From: an uncultured Pseudomonadota bacterium
GTDB taxonomy: Bacteria > Pseudomonadota > Gammaproteobacteria > Burkholderiales > SG8-39
Length of the DNA stretch: 64,000 bases
NCBI GenBank assembly: GCA_903829815.1
Contig: CAIKRR010000027.1
Location: forward strand, 1-64,000
Direction: 5' to 3'
The position numbers and the translations under genes were made by a program. Each line of letters starts with the position of its first letter. The stretch's first letter is position 1. Below, piece by piece: positions 14,870 to 23,027 of the stretch. Below the pieces are notes generated by a model that was given only the letters and a program-made list of their open reading frames with translations, made no database searches and was not told where the DNA came from.

Positions 14870-15913
14870 CTAGTCGGGCTTCACACCGGCCGCCTTGATC
14901 ACCTTGGTCCACTGAGCGGAGTCGCGTGCAATCTGCGCTGCAAACTCCTCGGGCGAGTTGCCCACCGCATCGATGCCATCGCGGGCCAGACGGGCACGAA
15001 AGTCGGGTCGCCGCACGATCGTGAGCACATCGGCATTGATCTTGCGGATGATCTCGCGCGACGTTCCGGCCGGCGCCATGAAACCGTACCAGGCCAGCAC
15101 CTCGAAGCCGGGAAACTCTTCGGCAATCGCCGGCACATCAGGCAGCACCGCAACACGATGGCTGCCCGACACACCGATGCCGATCAGCTTGCCCGACTGG
15201 ATCAGACCGATCGAGGCGGTCACCCCGCCAAAGAGCATCGGCACCTGTCCGGAGAGCGCATCGGCAAGTGCCTGACCAAAGCCCTTGTAGGGAATGTGGG
15301 TCAGTTCCAGATGGCCGGCCGTGCGTATCCACTCCATCGCCAGATGCTGATTGCTGCCATTGCCCGACGAGGCGTAGCTCCACTTGCCCGGTTGCGAGCG
15401 CACCAGCGCAAGCCAGGCGCGCAGGTCACGCGCCGGCACCGAAGGGTGCACCATGAGGGTGAACGGTCCCTGAGCAACATTGACGACAGGCACCAGGTCG
15501 CGGATCGGATCATAGGGCAGGCGGATGCCAAGACTGGGCGAGATCGTGATCGGGGCATCGGCGGCAAAGAGCAGCGTGTAGCCGTCTGGTACCGCCTTGG
15601 CCACCATATCGGTGCCGATGGCGCCGGCCGCACCGGTGCGATTCTCGACCATGACGGGCTGACCCCAAAGAGCACCCAGTTCGCCGGCCATGACACGTCC
15701 GTAGACATCGGGGGTACCCCCCGGCGGGTACTGCACGATGATGCGTACCGGTCGTGACGGAAAGGCAGCAGTGGCGGTCTGTGCCTGGGCCTGCGCACAA
15801 CCAAAGCCCGGCAACATCGGCCACACGACTGGCGCCAGGAGCACCGGCAACACCCGCAGCATCCGCCGCATCGACAGCAAGCAAGTGCGCAGGGCGCGCA
15901 ATACAGGGGGCAT
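14870..15913 (-). CDS. Bug/TctC-family periplasmic receptor (orphan)
   Basis: 347 residues. The signal peptide (MRRMLRVLPVLLAPVVW core) ends near AQAQA; the mature chain begins AAFPSRPVRIIVQYPPGGTPDVYGRV and carries VPDGYTLLF. GAGGAG lies just before the ATG. It is upstream of the LLM monooxygenase (13679-14758) on the same strand, so the pair could form a transport/oxidation cassette. It is divergent from another Bug gene 152 bases away; two different receptors sharing one promoter region is unusual. No TctAB permease is adjacent. Confidence 0.92.
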   Translation of the reverse strand: MPPVLRALRTCLLSMRRMLRVLPVLLAPVVWPMLPGFGCAQAQAQTATAAFPSRPVRIIVQYPPGGTPDVYGRVMAGELGALWGQPVMVENRTGAAGAIGTDMVAKAVPDGYTLLFAADAPITISPSLGIRLPYDPIRDLVPVVNVAQGPFTLMVHPSVPARDLRAWLALVRSQPGKWSYASSGNGSNQHLAMEWIRTAGHLELTHIPYKGFGQALADALSGQVPMLFGGVTASIGLIQSGKLIGIGVSGSHRVAVLPDVPAIAEEFPGFEVLAWYGFMAPAGTSREIIRKINADVLTIVRRPDFRARLARDGIDAVGNSPEEFAAQIARDSAQWTKVIKAAGVKPD

Positions 15914-16065
15914 GGCAGTCTCCTCGAAGAAACCTCACACGTGCTCTGGGGCGAAGACGTGGGTCAGACCGGAACAGTCAGCCGATTATGCGACCATTGG
16001 AGGCAGGAACTTCGATCGCAAGCGCGCCCCGCATCCCGTGGGCCTCAATCGAGAACAGAACCGCC

Positions 16066-17079
16066 ATGCGCCTCGCCACCCTGCGTCTCGCCACCCTGCG
16101 CCGCACGCTTGCTCGAGCGGTCATCGCACTCACACTGCTGACTGCACCCTGGCTGACGCATCCAGCCCGGGCCCAGAGCACCACCGCCTTCCCGACGCGA
16201 GCCATCCGCGTCATCGTGCCCTTTCCGGCCGGTGGCATCTCCGATGTCCTCGCACGGGCGCTCGGCGTACAACTGGCAAGCCGACTGGGGCAACCGGTCA
16301 TCATCGACAACAGGCCCGGTGCTGGCACGACGATTGCAGCCGAGCAGGTTGCCCGCGCGGCGCCCGATGGCTACACGCTGCTCATGCAGGACATCGCAAC
16401 CCACGCCCTCAACGCCACGCTGTACCGCAACCTGGGGTACGACACGCTGCGCGACTTCAGTGCCGTCGCCCTGGTGGCCGCCAGCCCGCTTGTGCTGGTG
16501 GTGAACCCCGAGGCCAACGTGCCCTCGGTGGCCAGCCTCATCACCGCCGCGCGCAGTGCGGGCGATCGCATGAGCTACGGTTCATCGGGCAATGGCACCT
16601 TGCCGCACCTGGTCGGTGAAGCGTTCAAGAGTCAGGCCAGTCTTGCCACGACGCATGTGCCTTACAAGGGCCAGACTGCTCAGCATGTGTTGTCGGGCGA
16701 GGTGGCCTGGACCTTCTCGGTCATGCCCCCTGCCGTCGCAGCGGCGAAAGGCGGCAAGCTGCGCGCCCTGGCGGTGACCTCCACCCAGCGAGTCGGCGCC
16801 CTGCCAGGGGTCCCGACAATGGCCGAAGCGGGCGTGTCCGGCTTCGAATTCATGTTGCCCAGCGGCCTGCTCGGTCCGGCCGCCATGCCCCGTGCCGTCA
16901 TCGCGCGCATCCATGCCGAAGTGACCATGGCACTGGGCACACCTGAACTGCAGGCAACGCTTGCCACGATTGGCGCCGAGCCCTCACCGATGAGCCCCGA
17001 GGCCTTCGCCGGATTCATCGCACGAGAAACCGAACGACTCGGTCGCCTGGCCCGGCAATCGGGCACGCAACTGGACTGA
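16066..17079 (+). CDS. Bug/TctC-family periplasmic receptor (orphan)
   Basis: 337 residues. The signal peptide has three nearby arginines followed by AVIALTLLTAPW and cleavage near ARAQS; the mature start is TAFPTRAIRVIVPFPAGGISDVLARAL, with APDGYTLLM next. The ATG at 16066 was chosen because the open frame further upstream (to 15754) is antisense to the neighbouring Bug gene. Its Shine-Dalgarno is weak (GAGAAC). The polysaccharide-deacetylase-like gene follows after 53 bases in the same direction, which suggests co-transcription and a nitrogenous ligand (inference). Confidence 0.92.
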   Translation: MRLATLRLATLRRTLARAVIALTLLTAPWLTHPARAQSTTAFPTRAIRVIVPFPAGGISDVLARALGVQLASRLGQPVIIDNRPGAGTTIAAEQVARAAPDGYTLLMQDIATHALNATLYRNLGYDTLRDFSAVALVAASPLVLVVNPEANVPSVASLITAARSAGDRMSYGSSGNGTLPHLVGEAFKSQASLATTHVPYKGQTAQHVLSGEVAWTFSVMPPAVAAAKGGKLRALAVTSTQRVGALPGVPTMAEAGVSGFEFMLPSGLLGPAAMPRAVIARIHAEVTMALGTPELQATLATIGAEPSPMSPEAFAGFIARETERLGRLARQSGTQLD

Positions 17080-17132: not shown

Positions 17133-18068
17133 ATGGATGCATCGCGACTGCTACCCCGGCAAGATCGTTACGACTACCACCCCTTGCCCGAACGCGCCGA
17201 CTGGGACTGGCCCGAAGGTCGTCGGCTTGCCTTTTGTGTGACCACCAACATCGAGGCTTACGCGTTTGGATCGGGCCTGGGTCCCGACCCGGCGCGACAG
17301 GACGGGGTACAGACGCAGCGCAACTTTGCCTGGCGTGACTATGGCAATCGCGTGGGCATCTGGCGGCTGTTCGAACTGGCTGATGAACTCGGTCTGCCGC
17401 TCGCGCACAACGTGAACAGCCTCATCTATCAGGTGGCCCCGCAGATCATGACGGTCATTCGCAAGCGGGGTGACGAGTTCGTCGGTCACGGACGCAGCAA
17501 CGCCGAATCGATACGCGGGATGTGGGAAGCCGACGAGGCCGAACTGATCGCGCAGGCGAGCGCAGCGTTCGTGACCCATGAGGGGCGCATGCCGGCGGGC
17601 TGGATGGGCCCCGGTGGCATCGAGTCGGCGCGCACGCTCGACCTCCTCAAGGAGGCGGGCTACCGCTACGTCATGGACTGGCCACTGGACGACCAGCCGG
17701 TGTGGCTGCGCACGCGTTCCGGACCGATTCTGTGCGTGCCCTACCCGATCGAACTCAACGACATCGGCACCAATGTGCTGCGCCATGAAAGCGCCGAAAC
17801 CTTCGCCGACATGATCGTGTGCCAGTTCGAGGAAATGGTGCGCCAGTGCGAGCGCGCCCCACTCGTGATGAACGTGTCGCTACACCCCTTCATCGTCGGT
17901 CAGCCCTTCAGGCTGTGGCGGCTGCGCCAGGCCTTGCAGCACTGCCGCACGCACGCGCTGCGCGAACGGGTGTGGTGGACTCGGCCCGGCGAGATCGCCA
18001 CCTTCTGCGAGTCGCTGCCCGCCGGCACCCTTGCCGGCAGCCAGAGCGCTACTGCGGATCGATCCTGA
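17133..18068 (+). CDS. polysaccharide deacetylase-family hydrolase (PuuE allantoinase-like)
   Basis: 311 residues, NodB-fold protein of the PuuE/peptidoglycan-deacetylase branch. Family landmarks: RLAFCVTTNIEAYAFG (first strand, with Asn-Ile-Glu where chitin deacetylases carry the Asp-Asp metal pair), EFVGHGRSNAESIRGM (GHG-S motif), GWMGPGGIES, and VMNVSLHPFIVGQPFR (LHP-G-P motif). Members act on C-N bonds of allantoin-like or other cyclic amides rather than on sugars. The ATG at 17133 has GGAG 8 bases upstream; a TTG directly before it is less likely. The 3' end overlaps the convergent Bug gene by 20 bases. Confidence 0.87.
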   Translation: MDASRLLPRQDRYDYHPLPERADWDWPEGRRLAFCVTTNIEAYAFGSGLGPDPARQDGVQTQRNFAWRDYGNRVGIWRLFELADELGLPLAHNVNSLIYQVAPQIMTVIRKRGDEFVGHGRSNAESIRGMWEADEAELIAQASAAFVTHEGRMPAGWMGPGGIESARTLDLLKEAGYRYVMDWPLDDQPVWLRTRSGPILCVPYPIELNDIGTNVLRHESAETFADMIVCQFEEMVRQCERAPLVMNVSLHPFIVGQPFRLWRLRQALQHCRTHALRERVWWTRPGEIATFCESLPAGTLAGSQSATADRS

Positions 18069-19122
18069 GTTCGCGCACCAGATTGCCCCAGCGCGCACGG
18101 TGCACCGCAATGTAGTGGTCGAGATCGCGGGCGCTCATGCCAGGCTCGGGGTAGATGCCCAGTGACTGCAACCGCACGGCGATGTCCGGCGCCGAGACGA
18201 TGCGGTCGAACTCGCGATTGAGCCGCTCGATGATCTCGGGTCGGGTTCCGGCCGGGGCAAGAATGGAGAACCAGCCCACGTAGTCAAAGCCCGGATAGGT
18301 CTCGGCGAGCGTCGGCACGCCATCCAGTTCGGGAAGGCGCCGCACCCCGGTCACCGCCAGCGGCACCAGTCGGCCACTCTTGATGGCGGCCATCACGGCC
18401 GGGATACCCTGGATGCTGAACTGGGTGCGCCCTGTCATGACATCCTGCAGCCCCATGGCGCCATTGTTGGGCACATTGATCATGGTGGCGCCGGCACGCA
18501 AGGCAAAGATCTCGGCAATCATGCCGGGGAGCGAGCGCGGGCCCGGACTGGTATAGGCCACCCGCGAAGGCTCGCTGCGCGCAAAGACAGCCAGTTCACT
18601 GACGTTGCGCCAGCGTGCATCGGGGTTTGCAACCATGATGAACGGGCTCATGCCCACCATGGCAACACCCACCAGGTCGCGATCGGGCTGATAGCCGATG
18701 GCCTTGTAGGTGAACTGATTGACCACGATGGCACCCGCGGTGCCAAAGAGCAGGGTATAGCCATCAGGGGCGGCGCGCGCCACAAGCTGCGCTCCCATGG
18801 CACCATCACCCCCGCCGCGGTTATCCACCAGCACCTGCTGACCAAGACTCGCGGACAGGCGTTCGGTGAGGAGGCGCGCAATCACATCCGGCGATGAGCC
18901 CGGATTCTGCCCGACCACCATGCGTACCGGTCGCAGCGGCCAGGACTGGCCGGATGCCGACTCGATCGCAGCGCCAAGCGCGATGGCCAGGACGAGGCAG
19001 GCAGCGGGCAAGCGAAAGCGGGGCTGGCATGATGAGGCCGCTGAAGACAGACGAGACCGCACTGCAGTCACGCTGCCAGCAGCAGGCAGAGACGGTTCAA
19101 GAGGGCGAGGCGATTGGATCAT
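18049..19122 (-). CDS. Bug/TctC-family periplasmic receptor (orphan)
   Basis: 357 residues with a long N-region, then ACLVLAIALGAAIESASG as the signal-peptide core; the mature start is QSWPLRPVRMVVGQNPGSSPDVIARLL, followed by APDGYTLLF. The glycine-rich loop is altered (GQNPGSSPD instead of the common PAGG-SD), so ligand contacts may differ. It overlaps the convergent deacetylase gene by 20 bases and is divergent from rpfC across a 167-base gap. GAAGAGA precedes the start. A shorter start within the first 40 residues cannot be excluded. Confidence 0.9.
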   Translation of the reverse strand: MIQSPRPLEPSLPAAGSVTAVRSRLSSAASSCQPRFRLPAACLVLAIALGAAIESASGQSWPLRPVRMVVGQNPGSSPDVIARLLTERLSASLGQQVLVDNRGGGDGAMGAQLVARAAPDGYTLLFGTAGAIVVNQFTYKAIGYQPDRDLVGVAMVGMSPFIMVANPDARWRNVSELAVFARSEPSRVAYTSPGPRSLPGMIAEIFALRAGATMINVPNNGAMGLQDVMTGRTQFSIQGIPAVMAAIKSGRLVPLAVTGVRRLPELDGVPTLAETYPGFDYVGWFSILAPAGTRPEIIERLNREFDRIVSAPDIAVRLQSLGIYPEPGMSARDLDHYIAVHRARWGNLVRELRIDPQ

Positions 19123-19289: not shown

Positions 19290-21839
19290 ATGTGGCAGGC
19301 CCTGAAGACCCGGCTGCAAGGACGTGCCGACAGCGAGCACGTGCAGATCCTGATCCGGATCGTGATCGTGAGCTTGCTGATCACCTATTTCTGGTTCGTA
19401 CGCGAGAGCGTTCCGAGCGAAGCCGAGGCGATCGGCAAGACTTTTCGTGTACTCCAGGTGTCGATGGTTGCAGCGGTCGCGCTGCTCCTGTGGCTGCTGA
19501 TATCGCCCGCCATCAATCCGCTGCGTCGTGGCATGAGCGCCCTGCATGACAATGCGGTGCTGTCGGCCTGTCTGATCCTGTGCGGTGAACTTGCCGCGCC
19601 CTGCTATGGGCTCTATCTCTGGGTGACCCTGGGCTATGGCTTCCGATACGGCCCGGCCTACGTCGTTCTGTCCCAGGTCTTGAGCATCGCAGGCTTTGGC
19701 GCCGTATGGGCAAGCTCCCCTTTCTGGCAGGAAAATGGACTGCTGACGGGCTCACTGATGCTGACCCTGATCATCATCCCACCCTATGCAGCGAGTCTGA
19801 TCCGAATGCTGCATGCTGCCAAAGCACGCGCCGAGGAAAACAGCCGTGCCAAGAGCGACTTCGTTGCGCTGGTGTCCCATGAATTTCGTACCCCGCTCAA
19901 CGGCATCATCGGTCATGCGCAACTGCTCGAGACCACGGCACTGACCGAAGAGCAGTCGCTGTACCTGCGCAATCTGCAGGGGTCAGCCGCCGGCCTGCTC
20001 GATCTGGTAGAGAGCGTGCTCGACATCTCGCAGATCGAGTCGGGTCAGTACGTGCCGCAACAGGCCGAGACGGGCCTTGCCGAACTGGTTCTCAACTGCC
20101 TGACCACCGTCGAGGTGCAGGCAAGGCAGCGCGGCCTGCACTTGAGCGCCCATATCGACCCGGCACTGCCTGCGCGCATCGTGCTCGATGCGCGGGCGGT
20201 ACGCGAAATCCTGCTGAACCTCCTGGGCAATGCAGTCAAGTTTACCGATGCGGGCACCATCGAGCTGATTGTCGCGGCCAGTGATGCCGAGCACGGGCAG
20301 ATTCGTCTCACCTTCAGCGTGCGCGACTCCGGCATCGGCATTGCGCGAGAGCACTTCTCGCGCGTCTTCGAACGATTCACCCAGGTGCGCGGTGGTTCGG
20401 CCCGACCAGCTACCGGCGCCGGGCTTGGCACCACCATCGCCCGCGATCTGGCACGCCGCATCGGCGGTGACATCTGGCTGGAGAGCCTGCCCGGTCGCGG
20501 CAGCGCCTTCCATCTGCAACTGCCGGCGCAGGGCATCCTGAACGAACGCACCCGACCCGAGGCGGACAACCGGGTGCTGCTGATCGGCACGGCCCAGCCG
20601 CAGGCAAGCCGACTCGTCGCCAACCTGGATCGCCTGGGCTACGCCTGCGAGGTCATCGCCAGTCCGGCACGGGCCATGACCCGACTACGCGCCGGCCCCA
20701 TGAAGCCCGATTGGGTGATCGTGGCCGAGTCGGTCGGTGACAGGGCCTGTCGACAGATTGCAAGCACCGTCCAGGAACTGCTGCCAGCGCAGTTCGAGAG
20801 TGCTCGACTGCTGGCGCTGACCGGGGACTGGGCATTGTCGGCTGCGCTCGCCGATGCGGGCTACCGCGCCTCGATGCCTGCGCAATTGAGCCTTGGTGCG
20901 CTGGCAGCCCTGCTGTGCCCGCCTTTGAATCCGACCAGCGCGAAGACCGATGCCCGCGCCCCTACCGCGGCCGATGCGCTCGTCCGGGCAAAAGCCCTGC
21001 TCGCACCGATGCAGTTCATTCGTGTGCTGCTGGTCGATGACAACCGGGTCAATCGCCTGATGATGTCGACCTGGCTTGAAAAGCTCGGTATCGAGCATCA
21101 GGTGGCAACCAGCGGCTACGAGTTTCTCGACATGGCGGGCGATGGCTCGTTTGATCTCTTTCTGGTTGACCACCAGATGCCCGACCTCGATGGCATCGAG
21201 GCACTGAACCTCTTTCGATCGGCGGCAACCGGTCCGGTGATACCTGCCGTACTCATATCCGCCGACGTGCAGCACGACACGGTCACGCGCGCCCTGCGTG
21301 CCGGATTCGCCGACGTGATTGCCAAGCCGCTGCGACTCGAGCGACTGGTTCCAGCCATGCGCCACGCCTTCAGGCCGGCCGAGTTTCACGTGCGCACCGA
21401 CATCCAGGCGCTCACGCCCGGGCCTGCAACGGCCACAACGCCGGTGGCCGCCAGCCCCGAGGCAGCTTTGGACATGGCAGGCGAGGCTCTCATCGACCGA
21501 ACACAGATCGTGGCTGCCACCGCCCTCGACCCCACCGAAGCGGCCGAGTTCGTGCTGCGCCTGAGCCGGGCCTATGCCGAAGACGCCCAGATCGTGTTCG
21601 CACACATGCGTGGCGCCCTGGCCGCCGGCGACTGGCCGTCACTCTGGGATTCGGCACACGCACTCAAGGGCAACAGTGCCAATGTGGGCGCCAGCGTTGC
21701 AGCCCTGTGCTGCGAGCGGCTCGAGACAATGTCACCGGAGGAACTCCGGATACAGGGCTCGAGCCGCATCGACGAACTGCAAACGGTGGTCGAGCGCAGC
21801 GTTGCCCAGATCGAGATAACCGCCGCCCGGCAAGCCTAG
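19290..21839 (+). CDS. rpfC: RpfC-like hybrid sensor histidine kinase (DSF sensor)
   Basis: 849 residues. The N-terminus (GRADSEHVQILIRIVIVSLL) and the WVTLGYGFRYG loop strongly resemble Xanthomonas RpfC, the receptor for diffusible signal factor. Layout: about five membrane segments (residues 18-172), HisKA with H197 in VSHEFRTPLNG, HATPase with GIGIAREHFSRVFERF and GAGLGTTIA, a degenerate receiver (about 430-545, LLIGTAQ instead of an acidic pair), an intact receiver (DDN, phospho-acceptor D627 in LVDHQMP, AKPL lysine), and a C-terminal HPt with H790 in SAHALKGNSANVG. It is longer than the ~726 residues of Xanthomonas RpfC because of the extra pseudo-receiver. CGGAG precedes the ATG. A TTGACA at 19163-19168 is a possible -35, with a poor -10. 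It is convergent with rpfF. No HD-GYP regulator (rpfG) is in the window. Confidence 0.92.
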   Translation: MWQALKTRLQGRADSEHVQILIRIVIVSLLITYFWFVRESVPSEAEAIGKTFRVLQVSMVAAVALLLWLLISPAINPLRRGMSALHDNAVLSACLILCGELAAPCYGLYLWVTLGYGFRYGPAYVVLSQVLSIAGFGAVWASSPFWQENGLLTGSLMLTLIIIPPYAASLIRMLHAAKARAEENSRAKSDFVALVSHEFRTPLNGIIGHAQLLETTALTEEQSLYLRNLQGSAAGLLDLVESVLDISQIESGQYVPQQAETGLAELVLNCLTTVEVQARQRGLHLSAHIDPALPARIVLDARAVREILLNLLGNAVKFTDAGTIELIVAASDAEHGQIRLTFSVRDSGIGIAREHFSRVFERFTQVRGGSARPATGAGLGTTIARDLARRIGGDIWLESLPGRGSAFHLQLPAQGILNERTRPEADNRVLLIGTAQPQASRLVANLDRLGYACEVIASPARAMTRLRAGPMKPDWVIVAESVGDRACRQIASTVQELLPAQFESARLLALTGDWALSAALADAGYRASMPAQLSLGALAALLCPPLNPTSAKTDARAPTAADALVRAKALLAPMQFIRVLLVDDNRVNRLMMSTWLEKLGIEHQVATSGYEFLDMAGDGSFDLFLVDHQMPDLDGIEALNLFRSAATGPVIPAVLISADVQHDTVTRALRAGFADVIAKPLRLERLVPAMRHAFRPAEFHVRTDIQALTPGPATATTPVAASPEAALDMAGEALIDRTQIVAATALDPTEAAEFVLRLSRAYAEDAQIVFAHMRGALAAGDWPSLWDSAHALKGNSANVGASVAALCCERLETMSPEELRIQGSSRIDELQTVVERSVAQIEITAARQA

Positions 21840-22747
21840 GCAGACAGTACCGCCGGCATGGGCGAGGCCTCGACACGAGCGCGCTGTTCAGCATTCCACA
21901 TCTTGATCTGCAGATCGAGGTAGCTGCGCATCATCTTCAGGTCGCGTGCTTCCACCTCGAGCACGGCATCGCACCAGACGTCGACGACATCATCGAGTTC
22001 GCGCCGGGTGATGGGCTCCACGATGCCACGAACCTTCTGCATCGCAAGAGCGGTATTGTGATGGCGCGAGTGTCGACGAATGAATTCGTAGACCGCCTGC
22101 TCGCCCTCACCCTTGGCAAAGAGCCCGTCGATCAGCCCCATGTCGCTCAGTTCGGTGGCACTGTACCGGTCGCCCGACATGATCATGCGCATCGCTTCGG
22201 CATGACCGATGCGACGCTTCAGGATCGAGTAGGCACCCATGCCCGGAAAGAGGCTGAAGCTGACCTCCGGAAAGCTGAACTGTGCATCGCGTTCGGCCAG
22301 AATCACCGATGAGGCAAGCGCGTTCTCGAAGCCACCGCCAAAGGCGCGCCCCTCGACCAGGGAAATGGTGGTGAGCGGCAGGGCGAGATTGTGCAGACGG
22401 TTCCACTGAACATCGATACAGGCGGCGGCATAGGCCCTCAGGGTGACCCGATCACGCCGCGCGTGCAGGTCGAGAAAGGCCGCCAGATCACCGCCGAGGT
22501 TGAACACGCCCGGGACTGCCGAGCCGTAGACGACATAGCGCACGCGAAACGCACTGCCTGCGGCCATCAGCGTGCCACCCGATGCCTGCAGCGAGGCATC
22601 GTGCTCGCGCATCTCCTTGAGAAGGGCCAGCGAGTAGCACGGACGCCCGTGCGGTTTCATGCGCTGCCACACGACCCCATGGGCAGGGTCCATGCTGATA
22701 TCGAGCAAGGCGTAATCGGGGTGGAAACGGATCGGTTCACGGATCAT
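21836..22747 (-). CDS. rpfF: DSF synthase RpfF (crotonase-fold enoyl-CoA hydratase/thioesterase)
   Basis: 303 residues. The sequence tracks Xanthomonas RpfF: VFNLGGDLAAF, EGRAFGGGFENALASS, FSFPEVSFSLFPGMGAYS and YSATELSDMGLIDGLF. Both catalytic glutamates are present, E141 (GGGFE) and E161 (FPEV), at the same numbers as in Xanthomonas campestris. RpfF dehydrates 3-hydroxyacyl-ACP and releases the cis-2-unsaturated fatty acid signal (DSF/BDSF). The start at 22747 has GAGG about 9 bases upstream. Its TAG stop shares a palindromic CTAG with the rpfC stop. An ordinary enoyl-CoA hydratase is less likely given the NLGGD and LFPGMGAYS signatures and the rpfC neighbour. Confidence 0.92.
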   Translation of the reverse strand: MIREPIRFHPDYALLDISMDPAHGVVWQRMKPHGRPCYSLALLKEMREHDASLQASGGTLMAAGSAFRVRYVVYGSAVPGVFNLGGDLAAFLDLHARRDRVTLRAYAAACIDVQWNRLHNLALPLTTISLVEGRAFGGGFENALASSVILAERDAQFSFPEVSFSLFPGMGAYSILKRRIGHAEAMRMIMSGDRYSATELSDMGLIDGLFAKGEGEQAVYEFIRRHSRHHNTALAMQKVRGIVEPITRRELDDVVDVWCDAVLEVEARDLKMMRSYLDLQIKMWNAEQRARVEASPMPAVLSA

Positions 22748-22859
22748 GGCGGGACCTCGTTGTCTGGATGATGTTGTTGGTGTTATGTCATCGAGGTGGC
22801 GAGCAGACGGCACCCGGCCACCGGTCGTGCCCGGTCATTCACAGGAAGGCGAGCGGGCA

Positions 22860-22875
22860 TGTGACAAATGTCGCA
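22860..22875. promoter_or_regulatory. CRP/Clp-type palindrome upstream of rpfF
   Basis: TGTGA-N6-TCGCA matches the CRP/FNR-family consensus TGTGA-N6-TCACA at 9 of 10 positions. It lies 113-128 bases upstream of the rpfF start, in an AT-richer stretch of an otherwise GC-rich gap. A CRP-like regulator could control DSF synthesis, or the site could act on a promoter facing the other way. This is a single-site match judged by eye. Confidence 0.35.
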
Positions 22876-23027
22876 TATCGTGAAAAATAGTCTTGCACGA
22901 TGCCCGGCCGATTCAATGCGCTTCGTGACGTATGCCACAGTTGGCGATCGATTGTGGGGTCGCGCAGCCCCCCGCGAGGGCTGCAACGGACCCGGTGCCG
23001 CCACCCTGTGGCGATCCGCTTGCAGCC

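What the first reader, a model, noticed from the sequence alone, without database searches (positions are those of the whole stretch)
19290..22747. Complete DSF synthase/sensor pair (rpfF-rpfC) in a betaproteobacterial catabolic region
RpfF carries both catalytic glutamates at residues 141 and 161, and RpfC has the GRADSEH N-terminus and GFRYG loop of the Xanthomonas DSF receptor. DSF systems in Burkholderia usually pair RpfF with the cytoplasmic RpfR, so an RpfC-type pair in a Burkholderiales-like genome, without rpfG nearby, is notable. The genes are tail to tail, as in Xanthomonas, and share a palindromic CTAG stop overlap, so transcripts of either gene may run into the other.
Basis: partly seen in the sequence, partly recalled or inferred. 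Interest (0 to 1): 0.72.

Follow-up and report, generated by a model that had tools for sequence, protein, structure and literature searches.

The report
Fatty-acid signal pair with relocated partner
Two overlapping genes in an uncultured betaproteobacterium encode a likely maker and a likely sensor of a fatty-acid cell-to-cell signal; such pairs are common in its family, but here the gene for the likely response partner sits elsewhere in the genome, and a close relative carries a second copy of the pair on a likely conjugative plasmid.

Summary
rpfC (19290-21839, +) and rpfF (21836-22747, -) are intact, convergent and overlap in CTAG. RpfF keeps E141 and E161 and groups with RpfF proteins, apart from seven of the genome's own hydratases. 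RpfC has a five-segment input region, HisKA, HATPase, receiver and Hpt domains, and all five residues shown to matter for DSF sensing in Xanthomonas. The reading 'notable because RpfC-type' does not hold: 49 of 98 family genomes searched have an RpfF, and the usual layout there is rpfG-rpfC facing rpfF. What is unusual is narrower. In this genus rpfG has left the module and sits beside enolase and a DivIC/ftsB-type gene; it is the only HD-GYP hit in the genome and groups with the RpfC-linked RpfGs. The genus's rpfC and rpfF are more diverged than its rpfG predicts. One genus-mate has a second rpfF-rpfC pair on a likely conjugative plasmid, whose RpfC lacks the Hpt histidine. A second RpfC-like kinase lies beside rpfF in both genus-mates and is missing here. 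Signal, sensing and relay to RpfG are inferred, not measured.

The parts
19290..21839 (+). rpfC: 849-aa hybrid histidine kinase, 5 hydrophobic segments, HisKA, HATPase_c, receiver, Hpt
   Evidence: (hydropathy)
19323..19346 (+). codons 12-19 (RADSEHVQ): R12, D14, S15, E16, Q19 match Xanthomonas RpfC R15, D17, S18, E19, Q22, shown by mutagenesis in a paper to be needed for DSF sensing
19878..19880 (+). H197 codon, kinase phospho-acceptor (HEFRTP)
21168..21170 (+). D627 codon, receiver phospho-acceptor (DHQMP)
21657..21659 (+). H790 codon, Hpt phospho-acceptor (AHALKG)
21836..22747 (-). rpfF: 303-aa crotonase-fold DSF synthase homologue
22325..22327 (-). E141 codon of rpfF (GGGFE)
22265..22267 (-). 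E161 codon of rpfF (FPEVSF)
21836..21839 (.). CTAG: both stop codons overlap, genes tail to tail
22748..23027 (.). junction upstream of rpfF where genus-mates G001 and G002 carry a second RpfC-like hybrid kinase (686 and 714 aa); absent here

Best explanation
The window encodes an RpfF-type synthase and an RpfC-type hybrid kinase that likely make and sense a cis-2-unsaturated fatty-acid (DSF-family) signal and likely pass it on to an RpfG encoded on another contig of the same genome. Inferred cycle, by analogy with Xanthomonas: at low signal the RpfC receiver domain would hold RpfF and keep synthesis low; signal binding at the short N-terminal segment (R12, D14, S15, E16, Q19) would switch on the kinase; phosphate would run H197 -> D627 -> H790 -> the RpfG receiver; RpfG, the only HD-GYP protein found in the genome, would then lower cyclic di-GMP. 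Shown here: the genes, domains, residues, the single rpfG beside enolase and a DivIC/ftsB-type gene, and the separation of rpfG from rpfFC in all three genus genomes. Inferred: the signal, the binding, the relay, and that the partners still recognise each other although rpfC and rpfF have diverged more than rpfG.
For: RpfF: best solved relatives are 6dgn, 5fus and 3m6m (E 8e-42 to 9e-40); both Glu kept in 121 of 121 rows, and 16 RpfF rows stand apart from 7 own-genome hydratases at 100/100. RpfC: all domains; sensing residues; among the 120 listed homologues (of 372 at E<=1e-80; 7997 candidates scored) many carry the JGI name RpfC and a Stenotrophomonas protein is tenth. RpfG: receiver + HD_5, HDIGK and HHEKFDGTGYP intact, sole HD_5 hit in the genome; its closest relatives outside the genus are RpfC-linked RpfGs at 61-64%, and it falls with them in a 39-row clade (99). 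Few other c-di-GMP domains: 2 GGDEF and 2 EAL hits. In G001 (about 10 contigs) rpfG and rpfFC lie on different contigs, each more than 180 kb from its ends.
Against: NCBIfam's RpfF equivalog cut-off is missed (172 of 550 bits); the B. cenocepacia RpfF segment misses it too (180) and only the Xanthomonas segment passes, barely (551), so the model is narrow. RpfG is not adjacent, so partnership rests on orthology. RpfC is about 30% identical to the family RpfCs. Two family RpfG rows (L177, L187) fall outside the 39-row clade, and the clade also holds Methylotenera and Sulfuriferula rows (quick tree). No signal chemistry, no expression data, uncultured host, draft genome.
Confidence: 0.72

Rival explanations
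1. The pair is a real DSF synthase/receptor pair, but RpfC no longer signals to RpfG: it mainly restrains RpfF or drives another regulator, and rpfG answers to a different kinase (for example the genus-specific RpfC-like kinase on contig C77).
For: rpfG is unlinked from rpfFC in all three genus genomes although 31 of 33 paired family loci show it beside rpfC; rpfC has diverged more than rpfG (mean identities to the family: RpfC 29.5%, RpfF 42.0%, RpfG 59.0%); a second kinase of RpfC kind exists in the genome. RpfF restraint by RpfC needs no phosphorelay in Xanthomonas (PMC4504480, passage).
Against: H197, D627 and H790 are all kept in the window RpfC, which a relay-free protein need not keep; RpfG is the only HD-GYP hit.
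Confidence: 0.2
2. The genus's rpfF-rpfC pair is a foreign replacement: the family's own rpfC and rpfF were lost and a divergent pair was acquired, while the native rpfG stayed. (This concerns origin and can be true together with the best explanation.)
For: Long stems of 1.39 (RpfF) and 1.65 (RpfC) for the four genus pairs against 0.48 for RpfG; in the quick RpfC tree the genus groups with one genome of another family (L154, support 90, flagged as a long-branch join); a second pair sits on a likely plasmid in G002. Exchange of rpfF/rpfC variants has been proposed for Stenotrophomonas (PMC4517397, passages).
Against: Holding genus and family together is not rejected for RpfC (p-AU 0.388) and gives a better RpfF tree than the free search (p-AU 0.86). 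No likely donor: outside the genus no RpfF exceeds 48% identity, no more than the family reaches (51%).
Confidence: 0.35
3. rpfF is an ordinary enoyl-CoA hydratase of a catabolic region next to an unrelated hybrid kinase.
For: Neighbours include three TctC-type solute-binding proteins and a luciferase-like monooxygenase.
Against: Phylogeny, residues, solved relatives, and convergent pairing with an RpfC-type kinase in 57 of 78 genome-contig loci and 33 of 35 family loci.
Confidence: 0.03
4. The CTAG overlap is a regulatory device: converging transcripts silence one gene or the other.
For: Overlap kept in G001; no terminator-like site between the genes.
Against: Not kept in G002 (17 and 95 bp gaps); overlaps are scattered, 10 of 57 pairs in the genome contigs set and 1 of 33 in the family set.
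Confidence: 0.06

Closest known systems
Xanthomonas RpfF-RpfC-RpfG DSF system
   Same: Convergent rpfF and rpfC; same domain order; five DSF-sensing residues and both catalytic Glu kept; an RpfG of receiver + HD-GYP type present
   Different: rpfG unlinked and beside enolase; no rpfH or rpfB seen next to the pair; RpfF far from the xanthomonad model (172 bits against 551 for the Xanthomonas segment)
rpfG-rpfC / rpfF modules of Thiobacillus, Methylobacillus, Methylophaga (review) and of this betaproteobacterial family
   Same: Same three gene kinds; the RpfG groups with theirs
   Different: There rpfG abuts rpfC; here the module is split and rpfC/rpfF are strongly diverged
Burkholderia RpfF-RpfR
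   Same: RpfF homologue with both Glu
   Different: Receptor is an RpfC-type membrane kinase, not PAS-GGDEF-EAL; GGDEF/EAL-linked betaproteobacterial RpfFs (L117, L119, L183) form another clade
Pseudomonas aeruginosa PA1396 sensor
   Same: Described as resembling RpfC but without an Hpt (PMC4504480, passage), somewhat like the extra genus-specific kinases
   Different: The extra kinases keep a receiver and, in the G001 one, an Hpt match just under the cut-off; no direct comparison with PA1396 was made

Membership tests
RpfF DSF synthase | Two catalytic Glu (E141, E161) | tested here: met
RpfF DSF synthase | Groups with RpfFs, not with enoyl-CoA hydratases | tested here: met
   16 RpfF rows against 7 own-genome hydratases (of 13 further hydratase-like hits), 100/100
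RpfF DSF synthase | NCBIfam RpfF equivalog cut-off (NF053515, 550 bits) | tested here: not met
   172 bits. Control: the B. cenocepacia RpfF segment also misses it (180), the Xanthomonas segment passes (551), so the model is xanthomonad-narrow and not defining for the wider family; the broader PRK08788 is passed by all three (308, 383, 399 of 177)
RpfF DSF synthase | Makes a cis-2-unsaturated fatty acid | not testable with these tools
   needs expression and mass spectrometry
RpfC DSF receptor | Five-helix input plus HisKA, HATPase_c, receiver, Hpt | tested here: met
   Pfam; five hydrophobic regions between residues 13 and 174, plus one borderline segment at 564-582 outside the input region
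RpfC DSF receptor | R, D, S/T, E, Q of the DSF-sensing segment | tested here: met
   48 of 88 aligned RpfC rows keep all five with K and T allowed, so 40 of 88 rows do not
RpfC DSF receptor | Phosphorelay residues H, D, H | tested here: met
   H197, D627, H790
RpfC DSF receptor | Binds DSF and restrains RpfF | not testable with these tools
   needs protein biochemistry
RpfG | Receiver plus HD-GYP with intact motifs | tested here: met
rpfGC-rpfF gene cluster | rpfG beside rpfC | tested here: not met
   not in the window and in 0 of 3 other genus pairs; rpfG lies beside enolase and DivIC genes in G000, G001 and G002
RpfR-type DSF system | PAS-GGDEF-EAL receptor beside rpfF | tested here: not met
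   the genome's GGDEF and EAL hits are on contigs C29, C32 and C74, not on the window's C27

The most novel reading that the evidence does not exclude
This genus runs a mobile, branched DSF network: rpfF-rpfC pairs sit both on the chromosome and on a conjugative plasmid, extra RpfC-like kinases with an altered sensing segment listen in, and all converge on one chromosomal RpfG; the plasmid receptor, stripped of its Hpt histidine, only brakes and releases its own synthase, so the plasmid broadcasts a signal that its host's RpfC-RpfG answers.
Probability: 0.17. Interest if true: 0.78.

Novelty: new variant of a known kind. Interest (0 to 1): 0.42.

Why it matters
It shows a DSF synthase-receptor pair kept as a two-gene unit apart from its likely output gene through a whole genus, and a related unit that probably rides on a conjugative plasmid. 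That gives a testable case of how a quorum-sensing circuit is cut up, duplicated and rewired, outside the plant pathogens in which it is mostly studied.

Tried and rejected
Ordinary hydratase: rejected. RpfR-type system: rejected (GGDEF and EAL hits are on other contigs). rpfG lost: rejected. A clear foreign origin of the pair: not shown; the quick trees put the genus on long branches and the AU tests do not reject vertical descent. A first tree against hydratases caught only one hydratase because of a bad motif filter and was replaced. rpfC on known plasmids: none of 72,556 PLSDB records covers 80% of window RpfC; 49 records match at E<=1e-40, and of the 15 listed, 14 match only from residue 163 on (kinase and receiver). 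The exception, the Methylorubrum extorquens AM1 megaplasmid, matches residues 73-466, part of the input region included, and also has an RpfF-like match about 218 kb away, so an RpfC-like kinase on a megaplasmid is not excluded. Plasmid RpfC at E<=1e-60: no match. G002:C38 as a plasmid is likely, not proven: Rep, ParA, integrase, TraC, TraG, TraH and TrbI matches; a relaxase was not looked for, and it is one contig of a metagenome bin. The CTAG overlap as a special device: unsupported. No structure prediction was run.
Full report
OBSERVATION. rpfC runs 19290-21839 (+) and rpfF 22747-21836 (-); their stop codons overlap in CTAG at 21836-21839. RpfC (849 aa) holds HisKA, HATPase_c, receiver and Hpt domains above Pfam cut-offs and five hydrophobic regions between residues 13 and 174. 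RpfF (303 aa) hits ECH_1, and its best solved relatives are 6dgn 8e-42, 5fus 2e-41, 3m6m 9e-40 and 7zq7 6e-39, against 8e-15 for the best ordinary hydratase. 6dgn and 3m6m are named RpfF by their depositors; that 3m6m is from Xanthomonas and 5fus from B. cenocepacia is recalled, not stated by the call.

IS IT RpfF AND RpfC? E141 and E161 are Glu in 121 of 121 RpfF rows, five of them contigs fetched twice. The NCBIfam RpfF equivalog cut-off is missed (172 of 550 bits), but the B. cenocepacia segment misses it too (180) while the Xanthomonas segment just passes (551), so that model is narrow. For RpfC, a paper on Xanthomonas campestris (PMC5391125; abstract, passages and section 8 seen) found R15, D17, S18, E19 and Q22 needed for DSF sensing. 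The window has R12-A-D14-S15-E16-H-V-Q19, so all five are kept. 48 of 88 aligned RpfC rows keep all five when K and T are allowed; 40 do not, so the motif is not universal in the family. H197, D627 and H790 are the relay residues. A search of 5.8 billion proteins gave 372 at E<=1e-80 of 7997 scored; among the 120 listed, six clusters are 48% or more identical, many others carry the JGI name RpfC, and a Stenotrophomonas protein ranks tenth.

HOW COMMON IS IT? RpfF was found at E<=1e-20 in 68 of 199 related genomes; by my count of the rows, 49 of 98 in the family and 19 of 101 in the rest of the order. I fetched 35 loci of the 46 non-genus family genomes with RpfF, 4 loci of other families and 1 of the genus. 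Of the 35, 33 have a convergent RpfC-type kinase within 4 kb. By the script's rule 29 have an HD-GYP gene directly upstream of rpfC; L171 and L179 have it too, hidden inside an over-long ORF; in L173 and L178 the kinase is cut by the contig end. L160 and L174 show no such kinase in the fetched stretch. Of 78 genome-contig loci (80 kept of 364 confirmed; the two of G002 set aside), 57 have the convergent pair, and 38 of these have rpfG; five of the 78 are contigs also in the family set, and 21 show no pair, some of them at contig ends. GGDEF/EAL-linked (RpfR-like) RpfFs of betaproteobacteria (L117, L119, L183) fall in another clade with 100 support (quick tree). A review names rpfF-rpfG-rpfC clusters in Methylophaga, Leptospirillum, Thiobacillus and Methylobacillus (PMC4504480, passages). 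So an RpfC-type pair in this part of the tree is the rule among RpfF carriers, not the exception.

WHERE IS rpfG? The window genome (98 contigs, 98% complete) has one HD_5 hit: a receiver + HD-GYP protein of 363 aa on contig C78, beside an enolase gene and a DivIC-family (ftsB-type) gene (the name ftsB is my reading). Its closest relatives outside the genus are the RpfC-linked RpfGs of the family, 61-64% identical. The quick tree places it with them in a 39-row clade (99), which also holds Methylotenera and Sulfuriferula rows, while two family rows (L177, L187) fall elsewhere. The same enolase-DivIC neighbourhood holds rpfG in both genus-mates, G001 and G002. In G001 rpfG and rpfFC are on separate contigs, each more than 180 kb from the contig ends, so the split is not an assembly artefact there. 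Other c-di-GMP domains are few: two GGDEF and two EAL hits, one protein having both.

DIVERGENCE. Genus against family, mean identities are RpfF 42.0%, RpfC 29.5%, RpfG 59.0% (93 comparisons); among family pairs with RpfG at 57-64% (8 of 465 pairs) RpfF is 45-65% and RpfC 36-53%, and 77 pairs with RpfG at 52-57% still have RpfC at 32-49%. The genus pair is thus more diverged than its rpfG predicts. Quick trees give it long stems. AU tests do not reject one clade of genus plus family (RpfC p 0.388; RpfF p 0.86 with a better likelihood). Fast change and replacement by a foreign pair both remain open.

SECOND RECEPTORS AND A LIKELY PLASMID. In G001 and G002 a second hybrid kinase with an RpfC-like input (686 and 714 aa) sits directly upstream of rpfF; in the window about 2.4 kb of the G001 sequence is missing between rpfF and the cupin gene. 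Relatives of that kinase at 42% or more were found only in the genus among 120 genomes (G000 one, on C77; G001 itself; G002 two); the other matches at E<=1e-45 are 35% or less. All four have HN(M/L)RTP in place of HEFRTP, and in the alignment R or H where RpfC has D14 and N where it has S15, with E16 and Q19 kept. In Xanthomonas every tested change of that Ser except to Thr impaired sensing, so they would probably not sense DSF as RpfC does. G002 also has a second rpfF-rpfC pair (RpfF 64.7%, RpfC 51.2% to its first pair) on contig C38. That contig (114 kb) holds a Rep3_C initiator about 40% identical to annotated plasmid initiators, a ParA, an integrase, TraC, TraG, TraH and TrbI, so it is probably a conjugative plasmid; neither G000 nor G001 has the initiator. 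Its RpfC has Glu in place of the Hpt His; the same residue is in another record, P0006, whose link to the same sample is unknown. Of 88 aligned rows 79 have His, these 2 have Glu, and 7 have no residue there. In Xanthomonas, RpfC's restraint of RpfF needs no phosphorelay (PMC4504480), so a brake-only receptor is conceivable.

PLASMIDS AND PAPERS. In PLSDB (72,556 plasmids) RpfF-like matches occur in 16 records at 40% identity or less. Of seven looked at, four have an EAL-domain gene next to the rpfF-like gene, two have neither an EAL gene nor a sensor kinase annotated directly beside it, and one has no annotation; the other nine were not looked at. No record covers 80% of RpfC; one megaplasmid (Methylorubrum extorquens AM1) matches residues 73-466 and also holds an RpfF-like match about 218 kb away. 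Exchange of rpfF/rpfC variants was proposed for Stenotrophomonas maltophilia (PMC4517397, passages). In my paper searches (titles and starts of abstracts seen, only asked about plasmids) I saw no plasmid-borne rpfF-rpfC pair; this does not show that none is in print.

MECHANISM. See the best explanation. Shown: genes, residues, locations, orthology of rpfG. Inferred: signal chemistry, binding, relay to RpfG, and the RpfF-receiver hold.

VERDICT. A real and intact-looking DSF synthase-receptor pair of a known kind, with an unusual genus-wide split from rpfG and a likely plasmid-borne relative. Moderate interest.

Noticed in passing
G002:C38 103687-107417 (L203/L238): Second rpfF-rpfC pair beside a plasmid-type replication initiator on a contig with conjugation genes; its RpfC has Glu in place of the Hpt His.
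   Followed up: yes
L149:12512-14572, L202:6509-8653, L219:7770-9746, L223:7651-9750: Genus-specific RpfC-like hybrid kinases with an HN(M/L)RTP H-box and a changed sensing segment.
   Followed up: partly
G002:C38 102034-102513 (L238:2034-2513): Stand-alone receiver-domain protein between the integrase gene and the plasmid rpfF.
   Followed up: partly
L096:10478-15144: In a Rhodospirillales bin an RpfC-type kinase is followed by a gene with GGDEF and EAL motifs where rpfG would be, a possible different output.
   Followed up: no
window 14870-15913, 15754-17079, 18049-19122: Three TctC-type solute-binding proteins close together next to rpfC.
   Followed up: partly
L220:5208-6959 (own genome C29): PAS-GGDEF-EAL protein whose EAL signature looks degenerate by eye; it holds one of the two GGDEF and one of the two EAL hits in the genome.
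   Followed up: no
NC_012811.1 (Methylorubrum extorquens AM1 megaplasmid) 988828-989628 and 1206725-1207915: An RpfF-like match and an RpfC-like kinase match on the same megaplasmid, about 218 kb apart.
   Followed up: no
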